Of a stretch of DNA of 64,000 nucleotides, positions 10,926 to 64,000 are shown piece by piece. The position numbers were made by a program, and so were the translations under genes. The stretch spans positions 11,935,318 through 11,999,317 of the forward strand of contig JAJEKV010000006.1 of the NCBI GenBank assembly GCA_021234155.1, written 5' to 3'. The notes below the pieces were generated by a model. It was not told the DNA's origin, searched no databases, and saw only the letters and a program-made list of their open reading frames with translations. Origin of the DNA: Isoetes taiwanensis (lineage: Eukaryota; Streptophyta; Lycopodiopsida; Isoetales; Isoetaceae). Position 1 is the stretch's first letter. Each line of letters starts with the position of its first letter.

Positions 10926-13350
10926 ATACTTTATCTGCCAGCCCAAAAAATGCATATTTGATTCATCTTTTGCTGGCAAGGTAAACTTCTAAATTGCTCA
11001 AACAGTTTAGTCAATCAAAGATTTGTTAAGTAATGGTTTAAAAGCCATATTATGAAGAATGAATTCACCTCAAAACTTCAAACAAAATTAGACCTAATGC
11101 ATTTTGAGAGTCTATGTAGACTCAAAATGATACTTGAGATCCGAGACATTACTTGCAATATGCCATTACTTTAAGAACCAAAAACTAAAACTAAAACAAA
11201 CATGCCACATTTGTGTAAGCAAGTAGTTTGGTTATTTGATCCGACTGCGGTGCGTCGCCGCTACTTTGTTTTTCTCGCATTTGCAAACATCATTATTACC
11301 CCCAATCCACCAAAGATGTTGAACTAGTCATCACCAATTAATGATATTAACAAATGACGCAATCTTTACACGCACCCATCAAACCGTTAGCACCCTCACA
11401 AAACCCAACACATATAAGTATTCAAGACTCCAACCAAATAAATTTTTGTCTATAATACCCTGGCTACTAGAGTTCACATCAAATTTCTACAATTAATATC
11501 TAAAGGTTCTTCGTAGCATAGTAAGCAAATGGATCTATCATCGCTGTGTTTTGTCATGTGGTGATTATAACCATGGTCATGCAAAATGGACATGACGCCT
11601 AAAATTAGCCTTTTGGAACTCCCCGCTCAATGTGATTTTGATGCAAAGAAATCTCGCACTTTTGAATTGGAACCACAAAGAGATGACCTCGAGGCATGCC
11701 AATCGCACATGAACACATCTATAATACAGGCAAGGAGGAATACCAGTGTGTTTTGCTAGGTTACATTCTACCTAACGTTCAAAGAAAAGAAAGAAAAAAG
11801 AGGGCACTCAAACGTATTCTCAAACAACAAAATGAAGAATGATAACAGGATCTCTTTATATTTATAAAAGAGCAAACCGCTTTTGGCACGATCTATGCCA
11901 TTAACCTCATGGCAGATGACCGACGCTTATCCGTACCATCTCCTCTTTTTAAATTTAAGATTTTGCTTGTAAGCAATCTAAAACTACTGCAACTCTCGAT
12001 TCGCTAATGATCTCCTTAATAACCTTGAGCTAGATGGTCAACCGGCACTATCTTTTTATGATTGCTTTGCAAGTTTGCATCGCTAAGTGACATAAGACAA
12101 AAAATGTGGGCCTTGAAGCTCATACCGCAATATTCAAGACATGACGCGACTCCTCTTCTCGCTTCTAAATAAACTGCCATACCTTATCTTCTCCTCGCTT
12201 TGTTTATCCTAAAACTCTCCTCTCCCCGCCAATCGTTAAAACCTTCTGCTGGTAAAGAGGGATACAAAATCTTAGAACGACAATCAAAACCTTGACCGAC
12301 AATCAAAACCTTTACTGCATGACCTTAGGCCTCTCAATTCCATGATGGCTGTAAAATGAAAGAAGATGGGCCGGGCGAAACGTGAAAACGTACTCCAGCT
12401 TTTGGCAATGGGACGAAAGCAGTTTACTCAGCGTAGACTCCACATAAGTCTCATGACATGTAAATGGCCATGCTGTTATCTTCGCCACGCCACTTTTATA
12501 GAATGCATCCTAATGATGCTTGAGCCCCTACCAGGCGTATCAGGAAACCAAACCGTGAGCTTGTTTGAAAGCCACCATCACAAGCAGCTAAATTCTCTTT
12601 GTTAGTTCGAGAATAACCTTCAAGAATGGGGTCATTTAGGTCCATTGAGCTTCATCATCTTCACATGGACCTTGGTAAACGCGAGAAGATTTTTAACACA
12701 TTGTTTGATGCAACCCAGCTTCGCGTGACACCGCCGCTAAGATCGCCATCTCAAGCAGTTCCCGCCTGTGGTGGTAATTACCCCTGTAACTACCAAAAGC
12801 TTAGAGATTGAAGATTAAGGGTGCGGCCAGCGCCTTGTGCACAATAAAGAACTCGCTTCCTCTTCATACACTCTTCAATTTTAAAATTTGGGTTCTTTCT
12901 ATGATGATCTCAGCCCGATCATCAAGCCGTAAACATAGCTCTTCTCAAGCGCTTAAGCCTCCGCTTGCTATCCGCATAAATTCTGCTAATCCAAACGAGA
13001 TTTAGCAAAGACAAAGATGTAAATAGTTTCCACTTGGGCCTCAAAAGTTAAAGATTCTCATGCATCAAAGTATTAGAATAAAGGGCTAGACATGGAACTC
13101 CGTGATATCTCAAGGGATCTGCCATCGTGGCCAAATCCCGATATATCCACCACCTATTGCCATGCACGCCATCCATCCGTATTGATGGCATGGTTCTCGC
13201 CGCCATGCCCATTCATGGGGCAGGCGGATGCCATGGAGAGCAAAATGAAGTGATATCCCATGCTACTTCCTGCCATGCCAAATCAAGATAACGCAACCCC
13301 GCCAACCATACCGCAGCAGGCGACTTCAATCATTTGTTCCTCAGCATTCT
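10926..13350. other. Non-coding stretch, GC rising towards the MULE
   Basis: No recognised coding sequence. Frames at 12,366-12,605 and 12,626-12,811 show no domain. GCCATG-containing phrases recur between 13,130 and 13,270 without a clear period. Confidence 0.4.
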
Positions 13351-13493
13351 AAAATGGATAGTTCGAGCAAGATCGTTTCTCCCGCTTCGCCAGCCAGACA
13401 AATAAATGCTCCTCGCCTCGGGTTAAGAAATTCCCATTTGGATGAGAATTTCGTAATCCCTTCCACCTTATTTTCCCGATCCTTCCTTAGGAG

Positions 13494-15905
13494 ATGGCAC
13501 CGACGGATCGCATCCCGGGAGGTAGAGAGGGTAAGCTTTCAATTGTTGGTTTCTCAATTATTTTCTTGGAAGGAAAACTCCGTAGCAAGAAATCGGGCTC
13601 CTCAGATCTCCCATTCAAGATCCTCCCCGTGCCCACAGCTTTCAAGGAAGGATTTGGATATGGGAAATGGAAAATCACCACACTGTACTCCCAAATAGTG
13701 GCTCGCTGGGTCGCTCCTTGCCGCTATATTCCAACTAATAGAGTTTCAGACTTCATCAATGGGGAGCAAGTAATCATCCAGGTTCAATACTACATTTTAT
13801 AAGCAATGGTCTTTGGCCAAGAGAGAGTGATGCAAAAAAGAAGCGCTGGCCGACGAAACCTATCCAAGATCGTGGAGGTAAGTTGCTCACATCGGCCATA
13901 ACCCACCTCTTAAATTGCGGGTGGTAGTGGTGGTTAGTCATGGAAAGGAGGGAAATGTTTGAACTAAATGATGGTTATCGTACATATAGTTATTGCAATA
14001 CCAAGTCTGAATGAGACCTAGCAAAGGAGGTGCTGATCCACGTGGCCTTCGTGGTGGTTAATGGCCTTAGTTAGTAGTGTGGTCATAATGTGGACTTAGT
14101 TAGTAATAGTGGTTAATGGCCATATTATGCAAGTTAGTTAATGGCTTGTTGCTGTGGTATATATGTTTGAATGTTTCACAAGAATTGAAGTTTGGTTTTA
14201 TTATTGTTTTAGCTACCATCAGGCCAGTGGTCCAAAAAGACCTCGGTGAAGCAACGTGAAGAAGCACAAGACAACTAAAAGCTATGGTTGCCGGGTTAAA
14301 GAGGATGACCCATCATACTCAAAGAGATGAGAGGGCATGAGCATCAAGAGAGGGTGTAGGTGCCATTTCACCACGAAGCAATTGTATTTGAAACCCGAAT
14401 GCACCAAAACAACCTTTCAGATGGAACAAGCATTGATGTGGGAAGGCAAAGTAAGGGCGGTGTTAATGACCCTCAATGTGCCAAGACCGTACCTAAGTAG
14501 CTCCCTTGGTTATCAAAAGAAGAAAGATTGGGCCAGAATCGCTTCTGATATGTAATCACAATCTCACGAGGTATACAGCAAAGATGAAGAGCAATGGCTC
14601 TAAAGTGTAAGAGGATTGGATCCGGTCATTGTGAAGTAAATAGAGATCACCTTCACATGGATGAGATCTCTACAATTTGTCTAGGAAGATAGCATTGGAC
14701 ACGGATGTTATGATGAAAAGACGTTGGTTTAAGTGTAAGGATGTGGGTAGAATTGCAATTTCTCGAATCGTTGTTCTTGTACCAAGAAGGTGTACCATTT
14801 ACCTAGGATAATCACTCCTTTCAAATGAAGATTCTCTTGAACATGGTAAGAATAATGCCGTAGCAATGGACTCAACTTTCAAGACAAACCACCATTGCTA
14901 CACATGATGACCATGGAAATGGTGTACCTGCTCGTCTCGCCTAGCCAGTGTAAGAGGACATCCGACCTTGGCTCGCATTGAAGAATCACATCCATGGGTG
15001 TGGATCCCATCACTTGGCAACCCTCTTGTTTTATCATTGATGATGCCAGCGTAGATTTCAATGCATTGGAAAATGCCTGGGACTCTAATTCTAGAACAAC
15101 AATACAATTGTGCATTTGGCATGTGAGGAGAATTATTGGATGAAAATGCTATTGAAGCAGAAGAACAAGAAGGTTAGAGGGGAGATGTTTAAGGACCTCG
15201 CCACATAATGTATAACGACATGTGGAAGCCATGGAAGATTTGGTAAGGATTATGTGGAGGCTTGTGAGAGGGAAGCTTCTGAGGCTATCGATGAGTTCAA
15301 GGAGAAATACAAATCTGAAAAGGTGGTTGTTACACATGAATGTGCACTTGACTAAGAACACGACTCTGGATCATCACATAAAGAATCTATCCTCATACCA
15401 ACCAAGAGACAAATGCTCGCTTATGAGGCTTATCACAACCAAAACGAAGAGAAAGTTGTGGGTTTCAAGGCACGCCTGTGAGGTGGTGGAGGATTGATTG
15501 GTTGATCTATATGCTCACGCAACACACCTTTGCGACAGTTCAAGAAGGATGAGGGTTTCAGTGAATAAGAGATGCCGAGCACATAGTTGAGACAAAGAAT
15601 TATAGGGGCAGCCTGGTTGGTCTCCCCGATGAGGTCAAGATGGGTTGGAAACTCAAAGAAGGGAGGGTCAAGTGGAGTCAAAATATGGATGCTTGGGATG
15701 AAAGCCGAGAGGTCGCGGCTCCTACCTTGTGGACAATGACATGAGCACCGGTCATCTTCTTTGGGGTATGAAAGGTAACATCTGCAAACACTCAGTCAAA
15801 GTGGACCAAATGATGGCCAAGTATAGTAGGAGGACATTTTTAAGGTTTGTGGAATATTGCATGGTTCTCAAGTCAAGCAAGGCTTGAGAACTTGAGGGCA
15901 TTTGG
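13494..15905 (+). pseudogene. Mutator-like (MULE) transposase with SWIM finger, frameshifted
   Basis: A cut-and-paste transposase of the MULE superfamily, inactivated. The N-terminal part (about 13,690-13,877) holds CRYIPTNRVSDFINGE. It is followed by a probable intron, then KKHKTTKSYGCRV and SIKRGCRCHFTTKQLY (about 14,255-14,390). The DDE-type core shows AMDSTFKTNHH (14,863-14,895), then PSCFIIDD (about 15,021-15,044) and LCIWHVRR (15,108-15,130). Near the end WGMKGNICKHSVKV (15,763-15,804) is a SWIM zinc finger whose first cysteine pair is lost. Pieces are in all three plus frames, with many stops between them. This motif order is typical of ZSWIM/FAR1-related MULE transposases. The upstream start is uncertain (ATG at 13,494 or earlier) and I could not find terminal inverted repeats by eye. 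Confidence 0.8.
13878..14212 (+). other. Probable intron of the MULE transposase gene
   Basis: Exon 1 ends CGTGGAG, followed by the strong donor GTAAGT at 13,878. A pyrimidine-rich acceptor TTATTGTTTTAG ends at 14,212. Conserved MULE sequence lies on both sides and coding similarity is absent between. The intron contains several GGTTAATGGCC / GTTAGTTAATGG phrases at 14,055-14,150 that resemble the minisatellite unit found 2.5 kb downstream. Confidence 0.6.
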
Positions 15906-16595
15906 TGAGGCATACGATGATGGTTTTATTGAGCAATAGGCACCATCTAGTCCGGTAGGATACTCTTGCACATCAAGTACGAACGGAGGATTAAGTCAAT
16001 GGTGAGGAGAAGATCAGACCGAGATTTAAGTATCAGGAGGAGAAGACTTCCCCACCACAAGAATCGAGAGTAGCATAAATGCGAGCATGGCCCGCAGATT
16101 AGGGGAGAGACCATCTGCAGCCTGCAGGTTGCTTTGGAGGCGGCAGACCTCCTACCGAGCTTACTTTGAAGTTATTGAGAGATTGACCACTTGCAAGTTG
16201 GGACACCGCCGTCGCACCCGCCCACCCATCGCGTGGAGGATTTCAATGGAAAGCTGACTGTGAGGTGAGTTCCATTCAGGAGTGCTCAAGAGGCAAAAAG
16301 AAGTTTGTTGGTTCTAGTGTGTTTTCCTTCGAGTGAAGGGCACCTTCAAGAGCGAAGGTTGTGGCCAAACAAACTCATGTCTTTTATAACCCATGTGTCT
16401 TTATAAATGCAATGAAACTAACCTTGCCCTAAGAAAAATAAAAGTTGAAATTGCACATTTTCAGTTTTCTCTCGTGTATTTAACATCGCTTAGTGTTTAT
16501 TTAACAAACCGTTGGGTCAGATTAAGTTCATTTTGGTTAGTGTGTAATATTAATTCTTGGCCAAGCATTAACCAAATTAAAGGCTAATGTGTCCA
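15906..16595. other. Downstream flank of the MULE
   Basis: The first few hundred bases may be decayed transposase C-terminus. CTTTATAAATGCAATGAAAC at about 16,390-16,420 is A/T-rich like a plant 3' end, but no definite polyadenylation site can be set. No other gene is seen. Confidence 0.35.
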
Positions 16596-16599
16596 TGAG

Positions 16600-17080
16600 T
16601 CTTTGGCCACATTAAATCGAATTGGGGTTAATGTGGCCACATGAAGTCTTGGCCATTAACCCATTTTGGTTAATGGGCTATTCTGGCCACATTAACTCGA
16701 ATTGGGCTAATGTGGCCACATGAACCTTGGCCACATTACTCTAATCAGCTAATGTGGCTGCCATAAACTTCCCGGCCACATTAAATTGGGCTAATGTGGC
16801 CACATGAAGCCCTGGCCACTTTAACTAAATTGGGCTAATGTGGCCATGAAGTCTTAACATTTCACACATTAACTGGGAATTGTCATCAAAATATTACGAA
16901 GTGTTCGCCAAGCATTTACCAAATTGCTAATGTGTTCCACATGAAGTGTTGGCCACATTAACCTATTTGTTAATGTATTAGTGAACTTCTCACATTAATA
17001 CCTAGTTAATGGCCACATGAAGTCAGGCCACAACCAATTAGTTAATGTGGCCACATGAAGTCTTGGCCACATCTAATGTT
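16600..17080. repeat. Hairpin minisatellite array A (GGCCACATTAA...TTAATGTGGCC)
   Basis: Roughly ten degenerate units of about 45-50 bp. Each contains TGGCCACATTAA, a short AT-rich spacer (CTCGAATTGGG type), TTAATGTGGCCA and a linker ACATGAAG(T)CTTGG. The two arms are reverse complements, so each unit can fold as a hairpin. Unit length and linker drift along the array. Confidence 0.85.
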
Positions 17081-17084
17081 CAAT

Positions 17085-17350
17085 GGTTGGTTACCTGAAT
17101 AATGTTCAATGGTTGATATTCAATGTTCAATGTTCAATGTCTAATGGTTCAAATAGTTCACAATGTTCAATGAATAATGTTCAATGTTCAATGGTTCAAT
17201 GTTCAATGTTCAAATGGTTCAATGTTCAATGTTCAATGGTTCAATGTTCAATGCCTTCCAATGTTTCCAATGTTCAATGGTTAATGAATAATGTCTCTAA
17301 TGGTTCAATGTTCAATGTTCAATGGTTCAATGTTCAATGGTCTAACGGTT
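17085..17350. repeat. CAATGTT / CAATGGTT heptamer-octamer array
   Basis: About 260 bases are built almost entirely from CAATGTT (7 bp) and CAATGGTT (8 bp), with occasional AATAATGT and CTAATGG variants. It directly abuts hairpin array A. A 112-residue open frame passes through it only because the repeat lacks stops in one frame; it is not a gene. Confidence 0.9.
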
Positions 17351-19134
17351 CAATGGAATATAGCACCAAAGACCAAAGACTAACACCAAAGATCGTGAAA
17401 TTTCAAGAAATTTGCCTGTGAGGACTTCACATTTAAATGAATCATTTCTTTTCATAATTTAGCGTTCGTACCCCTGCAGGCTTGAATACATCGACACGCG
17501 GCGCATTTAAACTCGTGGTATCAATTCGCTGCTTCAGAACCCTAAACTCGCGGAATGCAAATTGGGTCCGGAATCCTAAAACCCTCGCGGAATTGCTTCT
17601 TTACGCTTATAAACGCCATAACATTTTGAAGTGAAGGTGAACCAAATTGAGTCAATCAAAATTTCACCAGAGCCTGTAAAATTCCTAGGGCTTTACATTC
17701 CAGCCGACCACAATTTACTTGAGCCGGAGCACCAAAGACCAAGACCATCACTCCAATCGATGTACCCAAAGACCGCCAGAGAGCCGTATAAAGAAATTGA
17801 AGCATCATTCACGCCAGGAGTGATGTCCTCCGGGATGATGACTCCTGGAGGACCCACAGTTGCTACTGGTTATGCCTTTCCTGTATTAAATTACATCATA
17901 GGTCGACCAGATGCACATGTATAGATCTTTTGTAATAAAGAAGTTTCGCTTTTCGACATGAAAAGTCTCAAATTGCTTACCAAAGAACTTTGAGTCATAA
18001 AAAAGTTTCAGCTTCTAGAGTAAAAGTTCATAGAATATAAAGTTCACCAAAAACCTAAAGTTCCATTCTATTTATTGTCAAATCGTTTCATCACATGTTT
18101 TATCTCTCAGACACAATTAAGTAACTCTTCGTAAAACCCATGTACATGAAATGATAACTGGCCAAGAACAAAATGTCGTTTTACTTGAGCCTTCCTCGCT
18201 TTCTTAGCACTCTGCATCTAGCCGCATTCTTTGTGCTCATACTGCTGTCTCCTCGCACTTGCCCAAACAACATCAACAGAGGGTCTCCGCCTAAACTTGC
18301 AACCGCACTTTGTCAACCATTCCGGACTGACCAAGACAATTCAAGACAATTCATGGAATCACACCAATGTTTCAACGAAGTCAATTTACAAACGCAATTT
18401 GCTCTTGAACTGGCTCCTCAGGCTCCTCAAAGAATCGCTCCCTATTAACCTTCCAATTGGGTGAACCGGATCAACCCTATATCAACATCGGGCCTCAGTC
18501 CCTACCGGCCTCCTCAGGCTTAACTTGCTCCTCGTGATTCTCCCGCCTCCCCAAGCCGCCGCCTCCACAACCAAATTTACGCCATCTCTTCAAATGCTCC
18601 TCCGGGCCCGGCCCCTCTTCCTCCCTTGCCACCCACAATCCTCAATCATTATGCAACACCATTTGTCCCTTTCTTCATCAAAAGCCCTTTCCCGGCCTCG
18701 ATTATCCACTTAATCGGGCCTGGGCTGCATGCTGGGTTGTTGGGCCTGGGCCACAACACCACTACGCCAAGCCTTCGAGCTTCCTCAGAAGATGGGATGC
18801 CCTGAATCGACCACCTTGGTTTTTGCCGCCCACCATCTTTAGATCCACCGCCGGCCGGTAGCTCTCCACATGGGAAGAGAGCTCCATCTCCAATCAATTG
18901 GCCGAATCCGACATATCCGACCCACTAGCCTCGGGCCGTAGTCATTTTCAAGATCCGATGCCATGATCGAATCATAGTCTGTTGCTTGAAGCCAAATCGT
19001 AAATCGGAGTTCTTATTTCTTCCCCAATTTTTGCCTAATGGTATTGTTTCCAATGGTTTGGACAGTGCATAGATTGCCACAGCTGGGCCAATTCTAAAAA
19101 ATTGCCCTCGACACCGCGGGACATTAATCATGGC
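17351..19134. other. Spacer between minisatellite arrays, with unassigned open frames
   Basis: GC-richer than its surroundings. An ATG-less frame at 17,631-17,924 has 97 residues, proline-rich with PGVMSSGMMTPGGPT. A frame starting with ATG at 18,173 (91 residues) begins with a hydrophobic stretch like a signal peptide (LAAFFVLILLS). Between 18,480 and 18,960 proline-rich sequence is readable in several frames, as if frameshifted. I recognise no family, so these may be remnants of a captured gene. Confidence 0.35.
18173..18448 (+). CDS. Hypothetical small frame with signal-peptide-like N-terminus
   Basis: Product not recognised. The frame starts MSFYLSLPRFLSTL and has a hydrophobic core at residues 15-26 (AAFFVLILLS) with a following SPRTCP, which looks like a secretory signal and cleavage region. 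The rest is hydrophilic and has no visible domain. It lies in the spacer between two minisatellite arrays, with no convincing promoter or neighbours in the same frame. It could be a chance frame, or the first exon of a decayed receptor or secreted-protein gene; the N-terminus is the only argument for either. Confidence 0.15.
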   Translation: MSFYLSLPRFLSTLHLAAFFVLILLSPRTCPNNINRGSPPKLATALCQPFRTDQDNSRQFMESHQCFNEVNLQTQFALELAPQAPQRIAPY

Positions 19135-20215
19135 TTATAAGAGGCCACATTAACCCATGCTTTTCATGGATGTATCACAAAGATTTTAAGTGCCACCATG
19201 ATAGAAAGTGTGGTGAAGCTACCTGTCAGCGCGCTTAATAACCCATCATGGGCACATTAAATCTACGGTCACATTAAACCATTTCTAAGCACGTGGCCAC
19301 ATAAATCCATGGCCATACATAATAACCCATGGCTACATTAAACTATTTGATTATCAGGCCACATAAACCCATGGCCACATTAACCAAACTCATGTTGTCA
19401 TCAACCTATTTCTTGCCACGCCGCCACATTAAACCATGGCCACATTAACCTGGCTTTTGGTTAATGGCCACATTAAGCCATGGTCATTATTAAACCATTC
19501 GTGTTGGAATGTGACCACATAAACCCATGGCCACATTAATTATTTTCTCTTGGCTAATGGGCCACATTGTAACCCATGGCCATTATCAATCCCATTTGGT
19601 TAATGTGGCCACATTGCCATGGCCATTATCACCATTTGGTTAATGTGGCCACATAAAGCCATGGCCACATTAACCCATGGTACATAAACTATTCGGAAGC
19701 TAATGTAATATTAACCCATGGCCACATTAACCTATTTGGTTAATGCCATTAACCCATGCACATTAAATCATTCGAAGTTAATGTGGCTACATAAACCCAT
19801 GGCCACATTAACTCCATTTTGGTTAATGGCCATATTGTCCCATGGCCACATCAACCCATTTTGGTTAATGTGGCTATTAGCCATGGCCACACACCGGGTG
19901 GTCACATTACCATTCTCCGCCAATGTGGCCACATTAACCATGGCCACACATTAACTCATTTTGTTACCGTGGTTATTGCCGGCCATGGCCACACGGGTTA
20001 ACCCCATGGCCACATTGGTTCATTTTCCGGTTAATGTGGCCACATAAACCCATGGCCACATTAACTCATTTTTGGTTAATGTGGCCACATTGGCCATGGC
20101 CACATTAACCCATGCGCCACATTAAACCCATTCGTTAATGTGTGACCACTTTAGCCTATGGCCACATTAACCCAAAGTATTAGCCTCATGGTCACTTTAG
20201 CCAAAATTCAATTCA
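19135..20215. repeat. Hairpin minisatellite array C (CCCATGGCCACATTAACC...GGTTAATGTGGCC)
   Basis: About 1.08 kb of degenerate units near 43-45 bp: TGGCCACATTAACC, spacer CATTT or CATTTT, GGTTAATGTGGCCA, linker CATAAACCCA. The arms are perfect reverse complements over up to 14 bases, and CCATGG and TGGCCA are themselves palindromic. It uses the same arm sequence as array A but a different linker (AAACCCA instead of GAAGTCT), so the two arrays amplified separately. Short frames rich in HINPFWLMAT-type repeats inside it are artefacts. Confidence 0.9.
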
Positions 20216-21035
20216 ATAAGAATGTAATATAATATATTTCAGTTGCACACATAAGGCTAATGGTAATTCAATCTAAACAATTTCCTGCTGGTCGTCTGCA
20301 TGGCCTCCGCCCTGACACCTCGGGACGAATACTGTGCATGTATATGGATTCCCACCACAACATGTGGTCGAGGACTTCAAACACTTGCATCCCACCCCCG
20401 CATCACATCTCATGAGCTTTTCCTCCAACCTAGCGTGTTGTCTCATGGCTAGCTTTAACAAAATAGGGGCTTCGTGGTGTTGCCCTCGCCACAGGTGTCC
20501 AAGGCCAAAGTTATTTCTTCATGGCGAATGCCTCTCGCCTTGATAACGCTAAGATTTTCAATTCAGCTATCATTACCCAGTCTGGCTTCACTTACTATTG
20601 TCATCATCTATGTAATGCCGGGCCTGGGTTGAATTTGATCTCACCTTTCTCCACTCTCAGATAAATAAAACGGTACCTACAATCGTGATCACAACAAAAA
20701 TAAAATACCGAATTCATATGAAGGAAAACACAGATGCTCACTTGTAAATGTGTGGACGTCAGTTATCCCTGGCAAGAAGTGTTCCAACGTCCTCAAGCTC
20801 ATTTATGTACTACAATATCTTCAATAGTGAACATTGTAGATCAGACCAACAAGTTGTTGCCTCGTCCTCACCATATCTTCGATTCCTCTTTGATTCAATC
20901 AATTGAAACCCAATGAATTGGCTTTCTAAACCCCAACCCACGACAACTAATAGCACCCCATAGCCCTGATCGCTGTAGTAGCCGCTATACAGTAGACGCT
21001 AAGTACAATGCAAATCATAGTCATAATTCTAATTC
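20216..21035. other. Unassigned stretch right of array C
   Basis: A moderately GC-rich part (20,270-20,560) is open in several overlapping frames on both strands but resembles no family. The remainder is AT-rich and featureless. Confidence 0.4.
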
Positions 21036-21085
21036 TATGGCCACATTAACCACTACGAGATAATGTGGTTGCCATTAACCGCGGT
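21036..21085. repeat. Isolated hairpin-minisatellite unit
   Basis: TGGCCACATTAACC, then TAATGTGG and CCATTAACCGCGG. This is a single copy of the unit found in arrays A and C, about 0.8 kb beyond the end of array C. A CGCCACATTAACCG phrase near 21,508 may be another trace. Confidence 0.7.
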
Positions 21086-21239
21086 TCCACGTGGTGCATT
21101 ACGTGGCAACAAAGGGCTAATTCGGGCCGGTATCCAATCGGCACATACCGCTGAAGCGGGACAAAGCGATGGAAGTGGAGCGCAGATGTATACACGATTC
21201 TATTGAATGGGGCAGTGGCTGGCAGCTCAAGGACTTCGC

Positions 21240-21430
21240 AGTATGGCTGGCGTTGCGTTAATGGGATGGATGTAGTATGGGAAGATGAGATAATCATCTC
21301 CTCGCATGGCATCCCAGGCTCGCCAAGTGACTTCTGCAGGTATGGTTGGCATTGCAGTTAATGGGGGATGGATGCGCTGTGCATGTGCCAGCATGAGATA
21401 TCCATCTCCTGCATGGCATCCCCGCCCCAT
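21240..21430 (+). repeat. Tandem duplication, about 99 bp unit
   Basis: TATGG(C/T)TGGC(G/A)TTGC, GTTAATGGG and GGATGGATG, followed 40 bases later by ATCATCTCCT(C)GCATGGCATCCC, occurs at 21,242 and again at 21,341. Two copies with moderate divergence. Confidence 0.8.
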
Positions 21431-23755
21431 GAATGCGAACCCATGGCTATCAACAATGGATCGGCTTACGCGGCATCGTGACGGCGCAGTCGACATTCTT
21501 ATTTCTCGCCACATTAACCGATCCCGTACCGAGATATATACGGAAAGCCCTCGACATCGCAGCACGATCCGAGCTCCCGCATAAATATATAAGTAAACCC
21601 ATATTCAGAGTGGTTGCCACTTGAGTGGCCTGGGACTCCAAAGAAAGAACGTCCTCGGCCAAGACCGCCCAGCCAGACATGCACCTGACGGCCCCCGGCT
21701 TCCCAACCCCAATGCTCTGGTTTCCCAGCCATGGTGGAATGTAGACGCGCGACCACGTAGGAAAAGAAAATAAGGAGAAACGTAAAATGGTCCGAAAATT
21801 AACGCGGTCCACCGGAGCTTCTCAGCCGATTTGGAATATTAGGGAACTCATTTTTCAAACAAAAATCACATCACAAGAGAAAGTAGGGGATAAATAACAC
21901 CCATATCAAAGAGGTTCAACTTCTTTGCCATAACTTATAGGGACATTTTACTTATTATGAACATAGTGATACTATTCTCACATGATTATCTTCCTTTGTC
22001 AAAGCATTTGGTCTCGCCCTAGTCCAAAAATAAATATATGTCTTAGAGGTGCCTAGAATCAGATGAATGTAAGGTCGTTGGAGGCAAAGATCCAACAAAG
22101 CAATGTGTATGATGTGGTGTGATGCGTCGTGTCAGAGGATGGTAACATGGAGTGACGTACAACACTTCGCGGGCCCAAAACTAATTGACTAGATTGTCGT
22201 TTGAGAGGACATTTTTGTTGCATTGTTAAGCTGGAATATATTCTAACTCACATATGTCACATGATTTACGTGAGTAGGTTTATTGTATATGGTACTACAA
22301 CATTGTTACAAATAGATATTTTAAGTTACTAAGATAAGACTAAGACCAAACAACTTCTACCTCACAAATGTCACTTGATTTTTGTCAGTTAATTACTTAG
22401 TAGTTTCAACATCATACCATACTGGCATCATCACGTAGGACATATAACAGTTCATTTCCTCATGCACACTACACACGATGAGGCTCACCAAGGTGAGCTC
22501 ATGTTGTCTTTTAGTTGTATATGGTAATTCTGTATGAATATTTTGAGCTTTGATATTTGGACTCAAGAATAGATTTTGTTTTTTGTTTTTTGTTTTTTTT
22601 TTTTTTTGTTGGATACACTTGGCAGTCACCCACTTCAATCCCCATGTAGTAAATGGGTTTTTGCACCTTCAGGTGGCTGCTACCCAATGCCAATGAACCA
22701 CCTGGCTATAGGCGACAAGTCTACTTTATTGTTTTTAAGGCATCAAGGGCCACATAAAGGTTTGGACCCATTAGCAGTTTAAGGTCTTACCATTGGCCCA
22801 AGGGTGCATGCGTGGTAGATGATGTTTGGAGTCAACGTTGTGCTTCCTTTTCTATTTCTAATTGAAGTGATATTTTATGCCTCTTGCCTAATATTGGTAA
22901 GGTCTCATGTCTTCATGGATGTTAATACCCCCCCCTCCCCTTGTCCCATACACACCAAAACTCTTGAAATTCTTGTTGATTATGAATAGCTACTGAAAAT
23001 GCAAAGGGATCATTAGAGAGCAAAACATCTTGTAATAGAGAACAGAATGGGGGAAGCCAATCATGCTACACCCATGACTGAAGAATTTGGGAGTGTTGGA
23101 TTCTTCAGTCATAGGGGCAGCAAGAATGGCTGATCCCATTTTGTTCTTCAATGTCAAGCAAAGATAAGCAGATTCTACTAGTTTCTGCAAGGCGACTTGT
23201 CATTCTTGATAAGAGTGGCCCAAGAATCTCCAGGAATGGTGACCCGCTTTGCTTGACATTCTGATAGTTATCACACACGTATACATATCCCCATGTATCT
23301 AAGTAGATAAGGAAGTCGAATGGTAACCAATAGGGTGCTTGTGATCACGTTAGTTTTTTGGATGCCAATTCTAACAATGATTCGCATGCCACGAAGCAGT
23401 TTATATCTTGTGGCTAATAAACAACATGCTAAAGAATTTCCTGTCATTCCTTGTGGCTTAAGAAATGCTTAGATTGATATCTATGGCACATTTAGGGGTC
23501 CCATCTGGGGAATACAGACGAAACCCTTTCTCCCCCAAAGTATCTTACATTGTATTTATGTACGTTTACCGAATGAGGTTAAGTAGAAAAAGCAATCTGA
23601 GGACCCAGCCAAGGGAATTTAGATCTAGAGAGGGCAAAAAGCCCAAGCCTTGCAAGATATCTTTTTTTTTAATAACTTTTCATTTGGTCAAAAAGTTATG
23701 CCATTTCTCCATGGAAGGTGACTTAATCACCTAGATACTTTGAAGCTGCGTGTTT
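21431..23755. other. Non-coding stretch with a T/G-rich low-complexity run
   Basis: Between 22,573 and 22,612 there are T-runs interrupted by single G residues. Two similar phrases, CTAACTCACATATGTCAC (22,242) and CTACCTCACAAATGTCAC (22,358), hint at a weak 110 bp duplication. The frame at 21,450-21,812 (minus) is open for 120 residues in GC-richer DNA but shows no domain. Confidence 0.4.
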
Positions 23756-31924: not shown

Positions 31925-32345
31925 TTGCTGATAACCATTTATTCAACAAGAAAAAGCCTTGCCTATAGGCATCTCTAAATTCTTAAACAAGTTAATCAAT
32001 CAAGACATCTTTGTTTTATGAATTATATATTTAAGAACCGACGAGGACAATATGAGAACAGAGAACTTTTGATTTCCTTCCAATTTCAATATAAGACAAC
32101 AAAATACAAAAACTGCTAAGGAATTAGAATTAATTTATTAATTGTTACATACCATCTTGTACTTTTAGTCAAAGTGCCTTTCTCGGTCGGATTCTCCTTT
32201 GTTCTGAATTTTTGATTGATTCACCCAACTGAATAAGGATCAACGCTCAAAATTAAACCTACCTCAATCTTAAAGTGGATTATGAATGAAGGAATTCAAG
32301 CTCATATAAAGAGTTGTAATCATATGAGTGGTTTCATATAACTAA
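31925..32345 (+). repeat. Dispersed repeat adjoining the hAT transposase
   Basis: About 350 bp match the reverse complement of 55,390-55,820: shared phrases include TTATTCAACAAG, AAGCCTTGCCTATA, AAATTCTTAAACAAGTTAA, GAGGACAATATGAGAA, AATACAAAAAC, GATTCTCCTTTGTTCTGAA and GAATAAG(G)ATCAA. A third, partial copy is at 28,862. Because it begins within ten bases of the transposase start, it may be the 5' non-coding part of that element. Confidence 0.8.
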
Positions 32346-46209: not shown

Positions 46210-46457
46210 TGTGAGAAATCATAACGAATATAGGTCTAATTAAGTTTAACTTCTATATTTGTCATCTTCTGATATTGTTAGTAGTGGCTATTTATGACAT
46301 ACAACAGTCATGATATTTCTATTGATATGAGCCTATAAAAGAACAAGTCTCGGATGCCAAAAATGCACCAAGCCATCCTGAGCATTTTGTACTCCGTTTT
46401 GTATTCAAAGATTCTCCTTGTAATCTGTTGCATACATCTCTATTTCAAATTCTCACA
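46210..46457 (+). repeat. 5' LTR of the copia element
   Basis: 248 bp, TG...CA termini. CCTATAAAAG at 46,332-46,341 is a TATA box, so U3 covers roughly the first 150 bases. It has 15-16 bases (CTCGGATGCCAAAAAT) that are missing from the 3' copy. Confidence 0.93.
46334..46340 (+). promoter_or_regulatory. TATA box of the 5' LTR
   Basis: TATAAAA, conserved in the 3' LTR at 50,791-50,797. Position in the middle of the LTR fits the U3/R promoter of a small copia LTR. Confidence 0.7.
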
Positions 46458-46475
46458 GGTTATGGGCCCACTCAT
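46458..46475 (+). other. Degenerate primer-binding site
   Basis: GGTTATGGGCCCA directly follows the LTR. It resembles the iMet site TGGTATCAGAGCCCA only if a base is inserted and two are missing, so the match is partial. Confidence 0.4.
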
Positions 46476-46609
46476 GTTTTTAGCTGCGTGAAGTTGTTCT
46501 TGCTTTCCGGAAAATTGTTGAGCTATTCTTGTCTTCCGGGAAATCGCTGGGTTATCTATTTTTTCTCGCTATTCTTCCCCGCCATATTGCCATGGATTCG
46601 TTGTCGCTA

Positions 46610-49600
46610 ATGGTACGCTTTACTCAAAGTGATTGGCGATGTTGCCACGCTTTAGTGGTAACAATTTTCAAATGTGGAAATGGCGAATGCGATGATATTA
46701 GAAGATAAGCAAGTTTGGGATGTTGTGTCCGATATTACAACATCCACCATTGCATCTCAGTATCTTCTCATCTTCTCGATCTCGATTCCGAGGCACCAAA
46801 TGCGGTGCCCGTGTCGGTTCCGCCTCCAAAGTCCGATCTCTTGAAAGATTCGTAAGGCAAGACTTGTTATTTGTGCAAGTCTTGATGATACACCATGTTC
46901 GTTAAAGGAGCTCGAATCGCAAAATGAGATGTGGCAAGTTCTCGCTCAAACATTATGAATCTCGCATCGCCGGAATCGCTTGGCATTACGCAAACGACTT
47001 CATGATCCGCGATCTTCAAGAAGGGGAGATGTCATGAAGCATATCCGCACCATGAAGGAGCCGATTGATGATTTATGTGCTACTGGGTCTACTATCACAG
47101 AAGATGAAAAAGTCTGCATTCTATTGAATAGCCTTCCAAAAACTTTTGAAGGCCTTGTCATCAATCTTGAAGGGCGCCTTGCAGATTACACATTTGAATC
47201 TGCTATGGAGCGGGTCAAGAATGAAGCTTTACGTCAAGATCGGGCACCTGACTCAAAGTCCTCTGATACTTTAATGATTGCTGATCTCAGGGTCACTCCT
47301 ATGAAGGATTCAGTCAAGAAAGATTCTCCAAAGAAAGGCAAGTTTGACCGAAATAAGGTTACTTGTTACGGAATGTTAGAAGAATGGGCATCTTGCCCGG
47401 ATTGTCGTGGCACCGCACCCATATCCAAAGGGGAGACAAAGATCACCGCAATAGAGGAAGCAAGTCCAAGAATTGAAGAAGAACAAGATGAAACTCATGA
47501 TTATCTTTTGTCATTGCAAATTCTTGATGTAAAGCAACATGATTATTTACGGTACATTGACTGAGCAACATCCCATATGTCTCCTTATCAAGAGTCATTC
47601 ATCACATATGAAACTCGCAATTCTCCGCAGTGGTGGTTCGGGGGGATAATCGTCATCAAAATGCGGTTGGTGTTGGAAATGTGGTCATTCATTTCCAACA
47701 TGGAGTCAAAAAGGTCATAAGGGGAGTAATTCATCCCCGGACTGTAAAACTTGGTGTCCGTAAGTAAAATTACGTCTTTGGTCTTCAAGTTGTTTTTCTT
47801 CATAACTCCCCGCCAGTGTTGAATGCTAACCGAGGAAGATCTTGCTTGTCGGGCGGAAGAACAGGAATCGTACGGGTTACAAAATCAAAAGCCCGTTCTC
47901 TCAAACTGTGTTTTGCCATTACCAAACCCTCGACAAGCATAGTCCGTGGCATTATCGTCTTGGGCACATTGGTGCGACGCTTGCATATGCTTATTCATCA
48001 AGGTCGGCTTGAAGTCTCCACCGTTCTCGATCCCGCAATGCGTCTCCGTCTCCAAAGCAAGACCACTTTCGAAGCTCCTTTCCAAGATCCGACTCTCATC
48101 CGATAGGAAATTGCAACTCCACGACACCTGATCTAGTTGGCCCCATTAAACCCAAGACTTTAAATGGAGCTCGGTATGTACTAACAGCCTAGATGATTTC
48201 AGCGAAAACTCTTCATCTCTCTTCTCAAACTCCAAAGGGGAGACCAAGCAATGCAAGAATCGGACTTTCAAAGGAAATGGAGAGGCAATCCAACATACAA
48301 TTGTAGCCATCGAAGTGATGGTGGAGGAGAATTCGCTCAAATGCATTCAATGATTTCTCACATCCAATGGAATTCAACATCAACCGCTCTCGCCTCAAAC
48401 CTCCAGAGCGTAATGGCGAGCGTAAAGGGCCAATAGGACTCTCATTGAGACAAAGAAGAACTCTATTATTGGCTATGGAGGTTCCAGCTCATTTTTGGGG
48501 AGAAGCAATGAACACTGCAGCATATCTGATCAATCGATCTCCACATAAGGCAATTCAGAATCAAGTACCAGAAGAGGTTTGGTCTGGATCCAATGTCTCA
48601 TACAAACATTTCAAAGTCTTTGGTTGTAGGTCTTTCGTGCATGTTGCTAATCATCCAAAACTTGCTCCCAAGACAAAAGAATGCATGTTTATAGGGTACT
48701 GCACCAACAGGAAAGCCTATAGATTCTTTGATATTGAAAAAGGGAAGCTTGTCATCTCCTGCCATGCCACCTTTAACGAGTATGAATCATGCTCTTTATC
48801 TCGATCAGCAGGTACGTTATCAAGTTTTGTAATTCTTGATGAAATTGCAGAATCTATACTGGCCAGCCTCTCAGCCCGAACCCCCGTGTCTCGATCATGT
48901 CGCCTCGTGACCTGCATAAGTCCCTTCATCAAGTCCCTGTCCTACAACTGATACATCTGAGCCTTGGTCCATAGATGAATCCCCTGTTGAACCAGCATTG
49001 CCTATTCCTGTTTCCACCTTGCTTATCCCCGCTTCCACTTTCGGCCTATTCGAAATCGTGAGACCACCGCGACCAAAGATTATACATTCATGGCTTCCAA
49101 AACCCAATGAACCACAAAGTTATCAAGAGGCTATTGAAGGGCCTTTTACATCAATGGATTGTAGCCATGCAAAGAAGAAATGAATTCCATTCAAGAAGCC
49201 GAGACTTGGATCCTTGTTCCACGACCAACAACTCTCGGCATGTAGTTGGATCAAGATGGGTATTTAAACCGAAATTTAACGAAGATGGAAGCATTGCAAG
49301 ATTCAAGGCCGATTGGTAGCCGAGGTTTTCTCTCGACGATTGGTGGAATTGATTATGCGAGACGTTTGCACCAATGTAGCAAGAATGGTTTTACGTAGGT
49401 GATCCTTGCATATCGCGACACTAAATCATTTCTTTGTACATCGATGGACGTTACTAATGCATTTCTTCATGGTACTGAAAGAGGAAGTTTTCTTGGAGCA
49501 GCCAGAAGGTTTCAGCAAGGGACACAATCAGGAGATGGTATGTAAGCTAAATAAAGCACTGTATGGTCTGAAGCAGGCACCTCGGGCTTGGTATGAAAGA

Positions 49601-50650
49601 TTACATGACACCTTGATTCAGCTCAAGTTTCAGCAAAGCATCAATGATGCAAGTGTTTACTTCAGGCATGGTTCTCAACCTTTGATTGTCCTTTGTTATG
49701 TTGATGACCCGTTGATTGTAGCAAAGCAGATGACTAAGATCTTAAAAAACTCAAGGCTCAACTCAATCGGTTCAAGATGAAAGATCTTGGACAAGTTCAT
49801 TACTTCCTTGGCCTGTAGATTCATTATGATCAAACTCTTGGCTCTATGCATATCAACCAATCTAAGTACCTCAGGGATCTATTATCTCACACCAATATGC
49901 TTGCATGTAACCCCAGCTACAACCCCTCTTGACCCCGGTCTTGCTATGCTTCCTATCCGATCCAGTTGTTCCTCTCCCTCGCTTATCATGATCAATATCG
50001 CCAAATTGTTGGGACCATAAATTTTGTTTTATTCCCACTAGACTGATCTAGCCTTAGCCTTTGCAAACTAAGTCAATTTCAGAATCATCCAAAGGGGACT
50101 CATTGCAATTCATTAAAGAGATGTCCGAGATACCTTGCGGTACATATAATCATGGGATACATTATCGGGCGGGGGGAAAATCGAAATTATGGGCTCTTGT
50201 GACTCAGATAAGGGTGAGATCGGCCTGATCGAAAAATCAACATCCGGTTATGTGTTTGGCCGGCGTGGAGTGCAATTAGTCGGGCGACGGGCGAAAATGT
50301 GTGGCTCAATCAACAAATGTAAGTCGAAAGTACATATCACGGTAAAAATGCATGCAATGAGGCGCTTTGGTTACATAGGTTTGCCACGCACTACAAATCA
50401 CCGGGTCGTAATGCTTTGGACATTATGGTTGATAATCAAGGGGCTATAGCAAGATATCCCACAATCCAAAGAATGCATAAGAGAATGAAACACATTGATA
50501 TCGTGTATCATATGATCGAGATTTGGTGGAAAGTGGACTCATCAAATTACACTATTGTCCAACCCTAAGACAACATTGCAGATATGCTAACCAAGGCCTT
50601 GCCACAGCTGAACCAAGGTCTCAACTTCGACAAGAATTCAATTACCTGAT
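46610..50650 (+). pseudogene. copia gag-pol polyprotein, multiply frameshifted
   Basis: Gag (from ATG at 46,610): SGNNFQMWKWRMR, EDKQVWDVVS, then the UBN2-type block DVMKHIRTMKEPIDDL and LNSLPKTFEGLV (about 47,030-47,170). The CCHC knuckle after KVTCYG is ruined (about 47,360-47,410). Protease: the active-site region reads RYID-stop-ATSHMSPY (about 47,550), where DSGA would be expected. Integrase: SDGGGEF (about 48,320), RNGERK, AHFWGEAMNTAAYLINRSP (48,490-48,545) and KVFGCRSFVH. RT: VVGSRWVFKPK (about 49,240), KEEVFLEQPEGF, LYGLKQAPRAWY (49,559-49,594), YVDD (49,697-49,708). RNase H: STSGYVF (about 50,230), DNQGAIA, MKHIDI, DNIADMLTKALP (50,570-50,610). At least ten frame changes or stops are present. 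Domain order gives copia, not gypsy. Confidence 0.9.
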
Positions 50651-50654
50651 CTAT

Positions 50655-50667
50655 ATTCGAGTGGGGG
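50655..50667 (+). other. Polypurine tract before the 3' LTR
   Basis: CGAGTGGGGG lies directly upstream of the TGTGAG start of the 3' LTR, the expected place for plus-strand priming. Confidence 0.75.
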
Positions 50668-50899
50668 TGTGAGAAATCGTAACGAATATAGGTCTAATTA
50701 AGTTTAACTTCTATATTTGTCATCTTCTGATATTGTTAGTAGTGGCTATTTATGACTACAACAGTCATGATATTTCTGTTGGTATGAGCCTATAAAAGAA
50801 CAAGTCGCACCAAGCCATCCTGAGCATTTTGTACTCCGTTTTGTATTCAAAGATTCTCCTTGTAATCTGTTGCATACATCTCTATTTCAAATTCTCACA
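50668..50899 (+). repeat. 3' LTR of the copia element
   Basis: 232 bp, same termini as the 5' LTR. Differences seen: A/G at the tenth base region (AATCGTAACG versus AATCATAACG), CTGTTGGTATG versus CTATTGATATG, loss of AT in GACATACAAC, and the 15-16 base gap after AACAAGTC. Confidence 0.93.
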
Positions 50900-55389: not shown

Positions 55390-55820
55390 GACAGTTCTCT
55401 TCATCATAACAGAGAGCTCTTCATAACTATTACAGTTCTTCATAACATAGCAGTTCTTCATTCATAAGCATACTTAAGATTGAGAATGGGTTTAATTAAG
55501 AGCATTGATGCTTATTCAATTGGATGAATTGATCAAAAATTCAGAACAAAGGAGAATCTGACCAAGAAAAGCATTTCGTCTAAAACTACAAGACGATATG
55601 TAACAAGTCATATTATCAATTCTAATTCCTTATCTGTTTTTGTATTTTATTGTCTTATAATTTGGAAGAAAATCAGAAGTTCTTTATTCTCATATTGTCC
55701 TCGTATTTTTGGTTTCCAATATATAATTCATATATCAAATATGTTGTCTTGGTTGGTTAACTTGTTTAAGAATTTACAATGCATATAGGCAAGGCTTTTC
55801 TTGTTGAATGAATAGTTATG
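55390..55820 (-). repeat. Inverted copy of the hAT-adjacent repeat
   Basis: The reverse complement matches 31,925-32,345 across about 340 bp. Its left end adds short GTTCTTCATAAC-type repeats (55,385-55,465). No transposase follows on the side where one would be expected, so this copy is a non-coding derivative. Confidence 0.8.
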
Positions 55821-62325: not shown

Positions 62326-63315
62326 CATAATAACATGGGGGTTCTAGGGGGATTTGATATGGATGTAAAAATGACCATTTCCTGAAACCATACACCATAT
62401 ATCCCTAAAACAATTGAATGGGTTGTTATAAAAAAAAATATAGATTCAAGATAGAAAATAATCACATTAGCTCACTGAATATATTGGTTAAAGTAATCTT
62501 ATTAGGACATTGAGTTATTTTGATAGAGGTTCGAGCCCCCATATTTCATATTCTAAAATCTTATTCAAAGCCATATAGGGGTTCGATATTCTCTCAAAAC
62601 CTTAGGCGAACTCGTATTTTATATTTCAAAATCATAGGTGCCTCTAATCATAAATGACCATAAGCGAAACGAGAGGTGTCCAGAGGTCCCAACGTATGAT
62701 CTGGGCCATAGGATCGACGGATCTAATGACTGTGGTAGTCCAGGGTGCTCCTCGTTTAGAAATATGTAGCACAATAACAGGGGGTTCCAGGAGGATTTGA
62801 TATGGATGTAAAAAAGGATTTGATATGGATGTAAAAATGACAATCTTGAAACAATAGACTATATATCCCTAAAATCATTGAATGGGTTGTTATAAAAAAA
62901 AAACATAGATTCAAGGTAGAAAATAGTCACATTAGCTCACTGGGTATATTGGTTAAAGTAGTCTTATTAGGACATTGAGTTATTTTGGTAGAGGTTTGAG
63001 CCCCCGTATTTCATATTCTAAAATCTTTGGCAAAGTTGTATAGAGGTTTGATATTCTCTCAAAACCTTAGGCGAACTCGTATTTCATATTTCAACCATAA
63101 GCGAAACGAAAGATGCCCAGAGGTCCCAACATACGATCTGGGCCGTAGAATTGACGGATCTAACGACTGTGGTAGTCCAGGGTGCATCTTGTTTAGAATA
63201 TGTAGTACAATAACAGGGGGTTCTAGGAGGATTTGATATGGATGTAAAAAAGGATTTGATATGGATGTAAAAATGACAATCCTAAAATCATAGACCATAT
63301 ATCGCTAAAACCATT
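62326..63315 (+). repeat. Tandem repeat, about 440 bp unit, with tRNA-like (SINE-like) segment
   Basis: Units start with TAG(C/T)A(C/T)AATAACAGGGGGTTC at 62,326, 62,767 and 63,206 (the last is partial). Inside the two full units is TTAGCTCACTG-ATATTGGTTAAAGTA (62,467; 62,932), and about 60 bases later AGAGGTTCGAGCCCCC or AGAGGTTTGAGCCCCC (62,525; 62,990). These resemble the A box (TAGCTCAGTTGG) and B box (GGTTCGANTCC) of a tRNA. An extra 21-base duplication (GGATTTGATATGGATGTAAAA twice) marks units two and three. Each copy is too diverged for a functional tRNA. Confidence 0.8.
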
Positions 63316-63323
63316 GAATGGGG

Positions 63324-64000
63324 TTTTTTTTTTTTTTTTTTTTTTTGAGAGTAAGAGTAAATTTTTCCATTAATCAAGAAACACAGTACATAGATCTGCT
63401 TTGATCAGCAGATTAAAGCATATCAAAGATCTTTATACATAAACGTCCATCAAAATGTTGAGATGTGTAGTGTGAAGAGTATGTAGCAGAAATTAGACCC
63501 TGAGGTGATGTGAATTGGTCAAAAGGTACTTGTTGAGTAGAAATAGTCTTCCAAAAATGAGATAGTCTTCAAAAATGTGTGGAGATCGCGACCCCAACCA
63601 GTAATTAATGTTAAAACCTGAAAGTAACATCAACCAAAATTCTGCAAGATTAGGAGATACCATTGAGCAATTAATGTCTTAGCGTACTTTGGATTGGAAG
63701 TCGATAGAAGGATGAGGCTAACGGTCCGAAATGAAAGGGAGTCAAGCTTAGAGTTGAAGAAGGCATAGAAAGAGTCACAGATCCAAAGGTGTAACTACCA
63801 AGAATTCAGCCGGCAAAGAATGCTATCCATGCAAGATAGGTCGATACTGAAAACAAAGCAAGGAACCAAAACAAATCAACAGCCAAAGTGTAGCCTCGGA
63901 GGTCCTAATCTTGAGAATTGTTCCTCGGTCATGTATCTATGGTACATGGAGAGAAGTCAAACATAGTGTAGACTTGCACCACTTCTCTGGGCAGAACATT
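63324..64000 (-). mobile_element. Retroelement 3' region with long T-run (poly-A on minus strand)
   Basis: Twenty-three T at 63,324-63,346, followed by GAGAGTAAGAGTAAATTTTTCCATTAATC. The same layout (T-run, GAGGATAAGAAGTAGACTTTTTATTGG) occurs at 28,972. On the minus strand this is a 3' untranslated end with poly-A tail, entering the window from the right. No coding part is reached before base 64,000. It inserted directly at the end of the 440 bp tandem repeat. Confidence 0.6.

What the first reader, a model, noticed from the sequence alone, without database searches (positions are those of the whole stretch)
16600..20215. Minisatellite domain whose units are themselves hairpins
Two arrays share arms TGGCCACATTAACC and GGTTAATGTGGCCA but have different linkers (GAAGTCT versus AAACCCA). 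Every unit is an inverted repeat, so the 1 kb array C is a chain of potential cruciforms. Arrays of palindromic units are unusual because they are unstable; independent amplification of the same arm in two places suggests that the arm itself promotes amplification. I do not recognise it as a named satellite.
Basis: seen in the sequence. Interest (0 to 1): 0.75.

Follow-up and report, generated by a model that had tools for sequence, protein, structure and literature searches.

The report
Transposon-end motif arrayed inside its transposon
The odd hairpin-like repeats are many copies of a 14-letter sequence that also sits near both ends of an old jumping gene in this plant genome, and they look like clustered docking sites for a protein that the jumping gene encodes.

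Summary
The arrays are real, but not a free-standing minisatellite. They lie inside a Mutator-like DNA transposon (MULE; window about 13094-21549), a decayed copy of a family with at least about 40 dispersed loci in this 1.66 Gb plant genome. The family has terminal inverted repeats (TIRs) of about 250 bp, 9-10 bp target-site duplications, a MULE transposase and, in other copies, a convergent Ulp1-type exon. The array arm GGTTAATGTGGCCA is exactly TIR positions 29-42. It fills noncoding parts of the element; none was found in the transposase frames of the two copies scanned. Arrays sit in the same two places in 27 of 28 and 23 of 23 regions read. Twelve of 14 related elements carry arrays behind the transposase too, built on different 14-15-mers; in all ten elements whose left end was recognised, a homologous 14-mer starts at TIR position 29. 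Arms vary less than linkers, and changes are not compensated across the dyad, so the site sequence rather than a hairpin seems conserved. Best reading: clustered binding sites for an element-encoded protein, most like VANC anti-silencing targets in Arabidopsis VANDAL MULEs, but in a TIR-bearing clade where the array motif is also the end motif. Binding is inferred, not shown.

The parts
13094..21549 (+). Decayed copy of a TIR-bearing Mutator-like element (MULE) that contains both arrays; right edge accurate to about 5 bp
   Evidence: Sharp shared boundary at 41 of 42 ends examined (20 left and 20 right ends of other copies plus the window's two). On the right the alignment ends at 21544, extended by eye to 21549. 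No TSD found for this copy.
13094..13319 (+). Left TIR as far as it still aligns to right ends of the family; its motif copy is eroded in this copy
21310..21549 (-). Right TIR (inner limit approximate), 61% identical to the left TIR in this copy over the first 120 positions
21506..21519 (-). TIR copy of the motif (1 mismatch), near the right terminus
   Evidence: exact in 35 of 39 ends of other copies
14639..16352 (+). Decayed MULE transposase coding region
   Evidence: tblastn with the open frame of copy C919a: E 1.9e-54; that frame matches Pfam MULE PF10551 E 5.2e-18
16582..17053 (.). Array A: motif sites just 3' of the transposase region, both orientations
17101..17339 (+). Array B: (AATGTTC)n-like repeat; also found after array A in 5 of 27 other copies scanned
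17360..19120 (.). Middle part, partly shared with other copies. In others it holds an Ulp1-type exon on the strand opposite to the transposase; no such remnant was detected in this window
19142..20202 (.). Array C: 37 motif sites (up to 3 mismatches), 30 of them on the minus strand, mostly direct 16-17 bp repeats with some inverted pairs
20225..21310 (+). Right non-repeat part of the element, conserved in many copies
21038..21051 (-). Isolated exact motif copy between array C and the right TIR

Best explanation
The arrays are internal clusters of the 14-bp motif that also lies 29 bp inside each end of a Mutator-like transposon. Shown from sequence: one transposon family with TIRs, TSDs and a MULE transposase; the motif identical in TIRs and arrays; clusters in noncoding parts (upstream of the transposase frame, just downstream of it, and near the right end); unit number differing between copies; arrays of family-specific motifs in related elements. 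Inferred: the motif is a site bound by a protein that the element encodes. Most likely this is the convergent Ulp1-type gene product acting as a VANC-like anti-silencing factor, and/or the transposase itself. High site density would load the protein on the element's noncoding DNA, as motif density is reported to matter for VANC21 on VANDAL21. The array would then keep the element from being silenced, or help its ends be recognised. Tandem and inverted duplication, such as slippage or unequal exchange, supplies new sites, and selection keeps the 14-mer while linkers drift.
For: Element: array flanks recur as ordered left and right blocks at about 40 loci, a lower bound because only 40 of 266 and 40 of 104 candidates were scored; sharp ends and TIR at 41 of 42 ends; perfect 9-10 bp TSD in 11 of 14 copies with both ends held, against 1 of 182 mispaired flanks; MULE domain E 5.2e-18; transposase codon periodicity. 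Motif: exact at TIR 29-42 in 35 of 39 ends, mean column conservation 0.993 versus 0.782 over the aligned end region. Arrays: at least 15 sites at position A in 27 of 28 regions and at least 17 at position C in 23 of 23, shuffles 0-0.6 (overlapping inverted sites counted apart); none in the transposase frames of two copies scanned. Arms vary less than linkers in 17 of 17 copies with at least 8 in-register units; the linker-anchored control is weaker. Relatives: arrays 3' of the transposase in 12 of 14; a homologous motif at TIR position 29 in all 10 elements (this family and nine relatives) with a recognised left end; own-family TIR/array mismatch mean 1.4 versus 3.3 across families in the 8 with both. 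Convergent Ulp1 exon. Precedent: VANC21 (PMC5735166) and Ulp1-bearing VANC genes (PMC13317346).
Against: No binding, methylation or expression data. No DUF1985 (a VANC domain) was found: Pfam scans of middle open frames were negative, and the genome search was uninformative because its controls did not ring either. The Ulp1 evidence is one C-terminal exon just above the Pfam cut-off in this family (21.2 versus 20.7 bits). VANDALs are described as having degenerate TIRs (PMC10398659), unlike this clade. The C1025 TIR motif matches the C1075 array better than its own (0 versus 2 mismatches), and C1040 differs from its own array at 4 of 14 positions. In the linker-anchored control the left arm (0.795) is only slightly above the linkers (0.72-0.76). 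The TIR motif is not the only conserved end stretch: its 14-column window ranks 6 of 248 and the 28 bp outside it average 0.957. Two relatives (C1050, C1060) showed no array in the stretch read, although both have a homologous 14-mer at TIR position 29.
Confidence: 0.6

Rival explanations
1. Transposase-only sites: the arrays are extra transposase-binding sites, as in Galileo or foldback-type elements. They help synapsis, or titrate transposase and so restrain transposition, with no anti-silencing role.
For: A homologous motif starts at TIR position 29 in 10 of 10 recognised left ends, including two relatives in which no array was seen. Mu TIRs contain a MURA-binding motif (PMC3310237 passage; its position was not compared). 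Galileo tandem repeats contain functional secondary binding sites (PMC3688188 passages). MULE Muta1 has subterminal tandem repeats (PMC5225508 passages).
Against: Array A is not subterminal on the left: it is about 3.5 kb from the left end, behind the gene. The spread over noncoding parts, including a small cluster upstream of the transposase frame, is closer to the VANC pattern.
Confidence: 0.25
2. Passive minisatellite: a TIR fragment was copied inside the element (for example by gap repair) and expanded by slippage, with no function.
For: Unit number varies widely (up to 30 in-register units among copies). A second unrelated array (B) sits beside A in 6 of 28 regions scanned.
Against: Sequence-diverged motifs are arrayed at the same place in 12 of 14 relatives. 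Arms are conserved over linkers within copies (weaker). TIR and array motifs change together across five families (only 2 of 120 permutations, the true one included, are as good).
Confidence: 0.13
3. Hairpin function: the inverted units are kept for cruciforms or for hairpin RNA that yields small RNAs.
For: Strong predicted folding (z -11.5 as RNA over 19440-20190; z -5 to -6 for three single units as DNA).
Against: Only 5 of 303 altered dyad pairs remain complementary (1.6 expected). Array C is mostly one orientation. In relatives C974, C1040 and C1025 all array sites point one way, while C1075 is mixed, 12 and 103, so the inverted layout is not a clade-wide feature.
Confidence: 0.05
4. Assembly artefact.
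For: None.
Against: Same arrays at the same element positions in copies on many contigs.
Confidence: 0.005

Closest known systems
VANDAL21/VANDAL6 MULEs of Arabidopsis with VANC target-motif arrays (PMC5735166, PMC10398659; passages seen)
   Same: MULE transposase; a short motif (9 bp there, 14 bp here) accumulated as changing tandem repeats in noncoding regions; motif differs between related families
   Different: Here long TIRs are present and carry the same motif; motif longer and often in inverted pairs; no DUF1985 detected; binding not tested
Kaonashi (KI-MULE / KIU) Ulp1-carrying MULEs (PMC2528002, PMC13317346; passages seen)
   Same: Ulp1-type protease domain on the strand opposite to the transposase
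   Different: KI-MULEs are described as non-TIR; here only a C-terminal Ulp1 exon was recognised
Foldback-type MULEs: Tm1, Muta1, and FARE as cited there (PMC3169594, PMC5225508; passages seen)
   Same: MULE-superfamily transposase with short repeated motifs; 8-9 bp TSD in Tm1 and Muta1
   Different: Their repeats make up much of the TIR itself; here the TIR is not tandem and the arrays are internal
Galileo long TIRs with several transposase sites (PMC3688188; passages seen)
   Same: Repeats containing copies of the end-binding site
   Different: P-superfamily element of Drosophila; sites within TIRs
MULEs with tandem TIRs (PMC3310237; passages seen)
   Same: Extra copies of TIR sequence inside MULEs
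   Different: Whole TIRs duplicated, not tens of copies of one 14-mer
CACTA (En/Spm) subterminal TnpA motifs (recalled; only a sentence on TnpA and demethylation seen in PMC10398659)
   Same: Many direct and inverted copies of a short element-protein site
   Different: Different superfamily; the terminus here is GGAA[C/G]TCCG with 9-10 bp TSDs

Membership tests
Mutator-like element (MULE) | MULE transposase domain | tested here: met
   PF10551 E 5.2e-18 in copy C919a; window remnant tblastn E 1.9e-54
Mutator-like element (MULE) | 9-11 bp target-site duplication | tested here: met
   Perfect 9-10 bp in 11 of 14 copies; 1 of 182 mispaired. Not found for the window copy, C932 and C1103
Mutator-like element (MULE) | Long TIRs (100-500 bp) | tested here: met
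   Left ends of C908 and C919c align to most right ends over about 252 bp; the window's left end over up to 226 bp
VANDAL / VANC anti-silencing MULEs | Short motif in tandem arrays in noncoding regions, concentrated in the family | tested here: met
VANDAL / VANC anti-silencing MULEs | Motif differs between related families | tested here: met
VANDAL / VANC anti-silencing MULEs | Encodes VANC (DUF1985) | tested here: inconclusive
   No Pfam hit in the middle open frames scanned; genome search had no ringing control
VANDAL / VANC anti-silencing MULEs | Degenerate or absent TIRs | tested here: not met
   TIRs of about 250 bp
VANDAL / VANC anti-silencing MULEs | Protein binds the motif and causes loss of methylation | not testable with these tools
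   No protein-DNA or methylation data
Kaonashi-type Ulp1 MULE | Ulp1 peptidase domain opposite to the transposase | tested here: met
   PF02902 over cut-off in 3 of 3 exons scanned. By reading (150 of 428 candidates scored), the exon lies on the opposite strand at all 25 family loci where both are listed. Not detected in the window copy
Kaonashi-type Ulp1 MULE | Non-TIR element | tested here: not met
   TIRs of about 250 bp
Foldback transposon | TIR built of short tandem repeats | tested here: not met
   TIR consensus shows no tandem repeat structure (by eye) and the motif once, at 29-42; arrays internal
CACTA transposon | CACTA/G terminus and 3-bp TSD | tested here: not met
   GGAA[C/G]TCCG terminus, 9-10 bp TSD
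Catalogued satellite | Match to a named satellite | not testable with these tools
   No eukaryotic repeat library on hand

The most novel reading that the evidence does not exclude
One 14-bp site does two jobs in this clade: at the ends it marks the transposon for its own machinery, and in dense internal arrays it recruits the same, or a co-evolving, element-encoded Ulp1-linked protein that keeps the element unsilenced. End recognition and anti-silencing would be tied to a single fast-evolving code, a TIR-bearing counterpart, possibly ancestral, of the VANDAL/VANC system. The two relatives with the end motif but no array seen would then show the state before the arrays arose, or after their loss.
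Probability: 0.3. Interest if true: 0.75.

Novelty: new variant of a known kind. Interest (0 to 1): 0.55.

Why it matters
The finding turns an unexplained minisatellite into a set of predicted protein sites with a built-in comparative experiment: several related MULE families in one genome, each with its own version of the motif in its ends and its arrays. How transposons evade host silencing, and how such systems change specificity, is an active question; this clade offers paired site variants and paired proteins. It also warns that tandem repeats annotated as minisatellites in plant genomes may be regulatory parts of transposons. If end motif and array motif prove to be read by one protein, that would link transposition and anti-silencing directly.

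Tried and rejected
Free-standing satellite: rejected. By my reading of the matches that one search lists (the list is cut; 400 in all), the clusters fall on or next to loci of the element, except one on C357 that I did not match to a listed copy.

LTR-retrotransposon 3' tandem repeats, Helitron and CACTA: considered from memory, dropped once TIRs, 9-10 bp TSDs and the MULE domain appeared.

Foldback element: rejected as a class because the TIR is not tandem.

Second coding gene in the middle: codon-phase counts were weak there against a clear transposase control, and Pfam scans of middle frames gave nothing over cut-off. The Ulp1 signature was first seen by eye in relatives and then confirmed.

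DUF1985 genome search: no match, but none of the 14 controls rang either, so uninformative.

The first arm-versus-linker count could be flattered by anchoring on arms; the linker-anchored control gives smaller differences. Both are reported. In one search, 11 of 28 array-A regions were dropped because they had fewer than 8 in-register units. One search stopped on an error and was rerun.

TIR length: the 262-column consensus is partly set by how much was cut out; one search measured left-right similarity directly (about 250 bp), and the report uses that.

In one search the C1040 row was off by one base; recomputed. TIR starts of relatives were set by eye from the terminus.

Literature: the two primary papers on VANC mobilisation (EMBO J 2013) and Mu-like co-evolution (EMBO J 2022) are not held. 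I know them only through citing passages, so I cannot say whether they report motif copies in termini. Ten text searches listed no paper that I saw describing TIR-motif arrays inside a TIR-bearing MULE; that is not proof of absence.
Full report
What was checked. The window is G000:C1067:11935318-11999317 in a 1.66 Gb assembly. Light-harvesting protein matches (PF00504, 66 matches, best 5.1e-49) show a photosynthetic organism, so I call it a plant; the species is unknown. The arrays are real and far beyond chance, but 'every unit is an inverted repeat' is only partly true: array C has 30 sites one way and 7 the other.

The arrays belong to a transposon. The 17-mer GGTTAATGTGGCCACAT occurs 400 times in the genome, against 0 for the same letters read backwards, in clusters. 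Sequence to the left (14600-16500) and right (20230-22200) of the arrays recurs at about 40 loci each (43 and 69 match rows; only 40 of 266 and 40 of 104 candidates were scored, so these are lower bounds). Twenty left and 20 right outer edges were fetched. With the window's two, 41 of 42 ends gave a common start (C1028 left gave none), and left and right ends align to each other in inverted orientation, over about 250 bp in the longest comparisons. The shared terminus reads GGAA[C/G]TCCGTATATCTCAAGCGGGATCTGGTTAATGTGGCCAG in most copies. Perfect 9-10 bp target-site duplications flank 11 of 14 copies with both ends held (control 1 of 182 mispaired flanks); the window copy, C932 and C1103 gave none. 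An open frame of copy C919a matches the MULE transposase domain (E 5.2e-18), and the window carries its decayed relative at 14639-16352 (E 1.9e-54). The element therefore is a Mutator-like element and the window holds an old copy: its left part is 76-81% identical to seven others compared, while some of those are 91-95% identical to each other.

The arm is the end motif. GGTTAATGTGGCCA is positions 29-42 of the TIR, exact in 35 of 39 ends, the window's two excluded. The whole outer 45 bp is well conserved, so the motif is part of a conserved end and not its only conserved stretch: its 14-column window ranks 6 of 248. Among regions examined, position A had 15 or more sites in 27 of 28 (the exception, C1047, had 3) and position C 17 or more in 23 of 23; single-base shuffles gave 0 to 0.6 (up to 3 mismatches, overlapping inverted sites counted apart). 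Twenty of the A regions and 20 of the C regions were picked by their flanks, not by motif content; among those 20 A regions the figure is 19 of 20. No site lies in the transposase frames of the two copies scanned, while a small same-strand cluster lies upstream of the transposase in three of three copies looked at (C908, C413, C919c).

What is conserved. In 17 copies with at least 8 units in a 44-bp register (306 units; 11 of 28 regions dropped), the arms are 96% consensus and the two linkers 80%; arms exceed linkers in all 17. Because units were found by their arms, I repeated this anchoring on the linker alone (355 units): right arm 0.915, left arm 0.795, loop 0.721; anchored on arms (391 units) loop 0.739, linker 0.756. 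The effect is smaller, and slight for the left arm. Of 303 dyad pairs with a change, only 5 stay complementary (1.6 expected). The hairpin folds well on paper, yet nothing shows it is what is kept.

Relatives give the strongest test. If the arrays are copies of a bound end motif, related elements with changed ends should carry changed arrays. The transposase search listed relatives at 51-78% identity (74 of 2576 candidates scored). I read 14 of them: five as 10-kb stretches and nine as pieces. Twelve have arrays just 3' of the transposase. Ten of these are built on clearly homologous 14-mers: GGTGTTTCTGG[C/A]CA, GGTATTTCTGGCCA, GGTTAATCAGGACA, GGTTTATC[C/T]GGACA; two more diverged ones (GGTTAACCTAGACA, GGTTCAAACATGACA) I read from the repeat unit by eye. 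C1050 and C1060 showed none; C1050 has a reverse-transcriptase frame there and only 2.5 kb of C1060 was read. A left terminus could be recognised in this family and nine relatives (starts set by eye), and in all ten a homologous 14-mer starts at position 29; C1050 and C1060 are among them (GGTAAACCCGGGCA), so the end motif occurs without arrays in view. In the eight elements with both, TIR and array motifs differ by 1.4 positions within a family and 3.3 between families; with one representative for each of five families, 2 of 120 assignments, the true one included, do as well as the true one for all eight choices of representatives. Against the pattern, the C1025 TIR motif fits the C1075 array better than its own, and C1040 differs from its own at 4 positions.

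A second gene. A short exon with the Ulp1 protease signature lies in the middle of other copies and relatives, over the Pfam cut-off in 3 of 3 tested (21.2, 23.8 and 28.1 bits against 20.7). Comparing by reading, it is on the strand opposite to the transposase at all 25 family loci where both are listed. No remnant was detected in the window, and no DUF1985 domain in the frames tested (genome search uninformative).

How it most likely works. In Arabidopsis VANDAL MULEs, VANC proteins bind short motifs that build up as changing tandem repeats in noncoding regions, with motif density important, and remove DNA methylation from the element (passages of PMC5735166, and PMC10398659). Some VANC genes carry an Ulp1 domain (passage of PMC13317346). 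The anatomy here matches this: noncoding arrays, one motif per family, turnover of unit number, Ulp1-type gene. It differs in having long TIRs that carry the same motif, whereas VANDALs are described with degenerate TIRs. I therefore infer that the arrays are docking sites for an element-encoded protein, the Ulp1-type product and/or the transposase. Transposase-only sites, as shown for Galileo (passages of PMC3688188), remain a fair rival. Neither binding nor anti-silencing was tested.

Verdict. Not a new satellite and not primarily a hairpin story, but a clear case of a transposon's end motif amplified inside it, seen in most of the MULE relatives read: a new variant of a known kind.

Noticed in passing
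window 46210-50899: Copia-like LTR element with near-identical LTR pieces (99-100%) and gag-, integrase- and RT-like frames named by eye, probably a recent insertion.
   Followed up: no
window 62430-63327: Tandem duplication of about 440-465 bp, pieces 89-92% identical.
   Followed up: no
window 32136-32259 and 55489-55612: A 124-nt inverted repeat, 85% complementary, 23 kb apart; possibly two copies of a small transposon.
   Followed up: no
window 17101-17339: Array B, an (AATGTTC)n-like repeat next to array A that recurs in C1099, C1080, C969, C1028 and C919a (5 of 27 other copies scanned); unrelated to the 14-mer.
   Followed up: partly
L116 (C1033:1445965-1448464) and L108 (C1033:1330227-1332726): Two distant MULE relatives carry still more diverged arrays: period 22 with about 100 copies (GGTTCAAACATGACA) and period 26 with about 53 copies (GGTTAACCTAGACA).
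   Followed up: partly
C1084, C1028, C1093, C1099 copies: Left and right parts that I take for single family copies lie about 20-36 kb apart, so some copies are very long or hold nested insertions.
   Followed up: no
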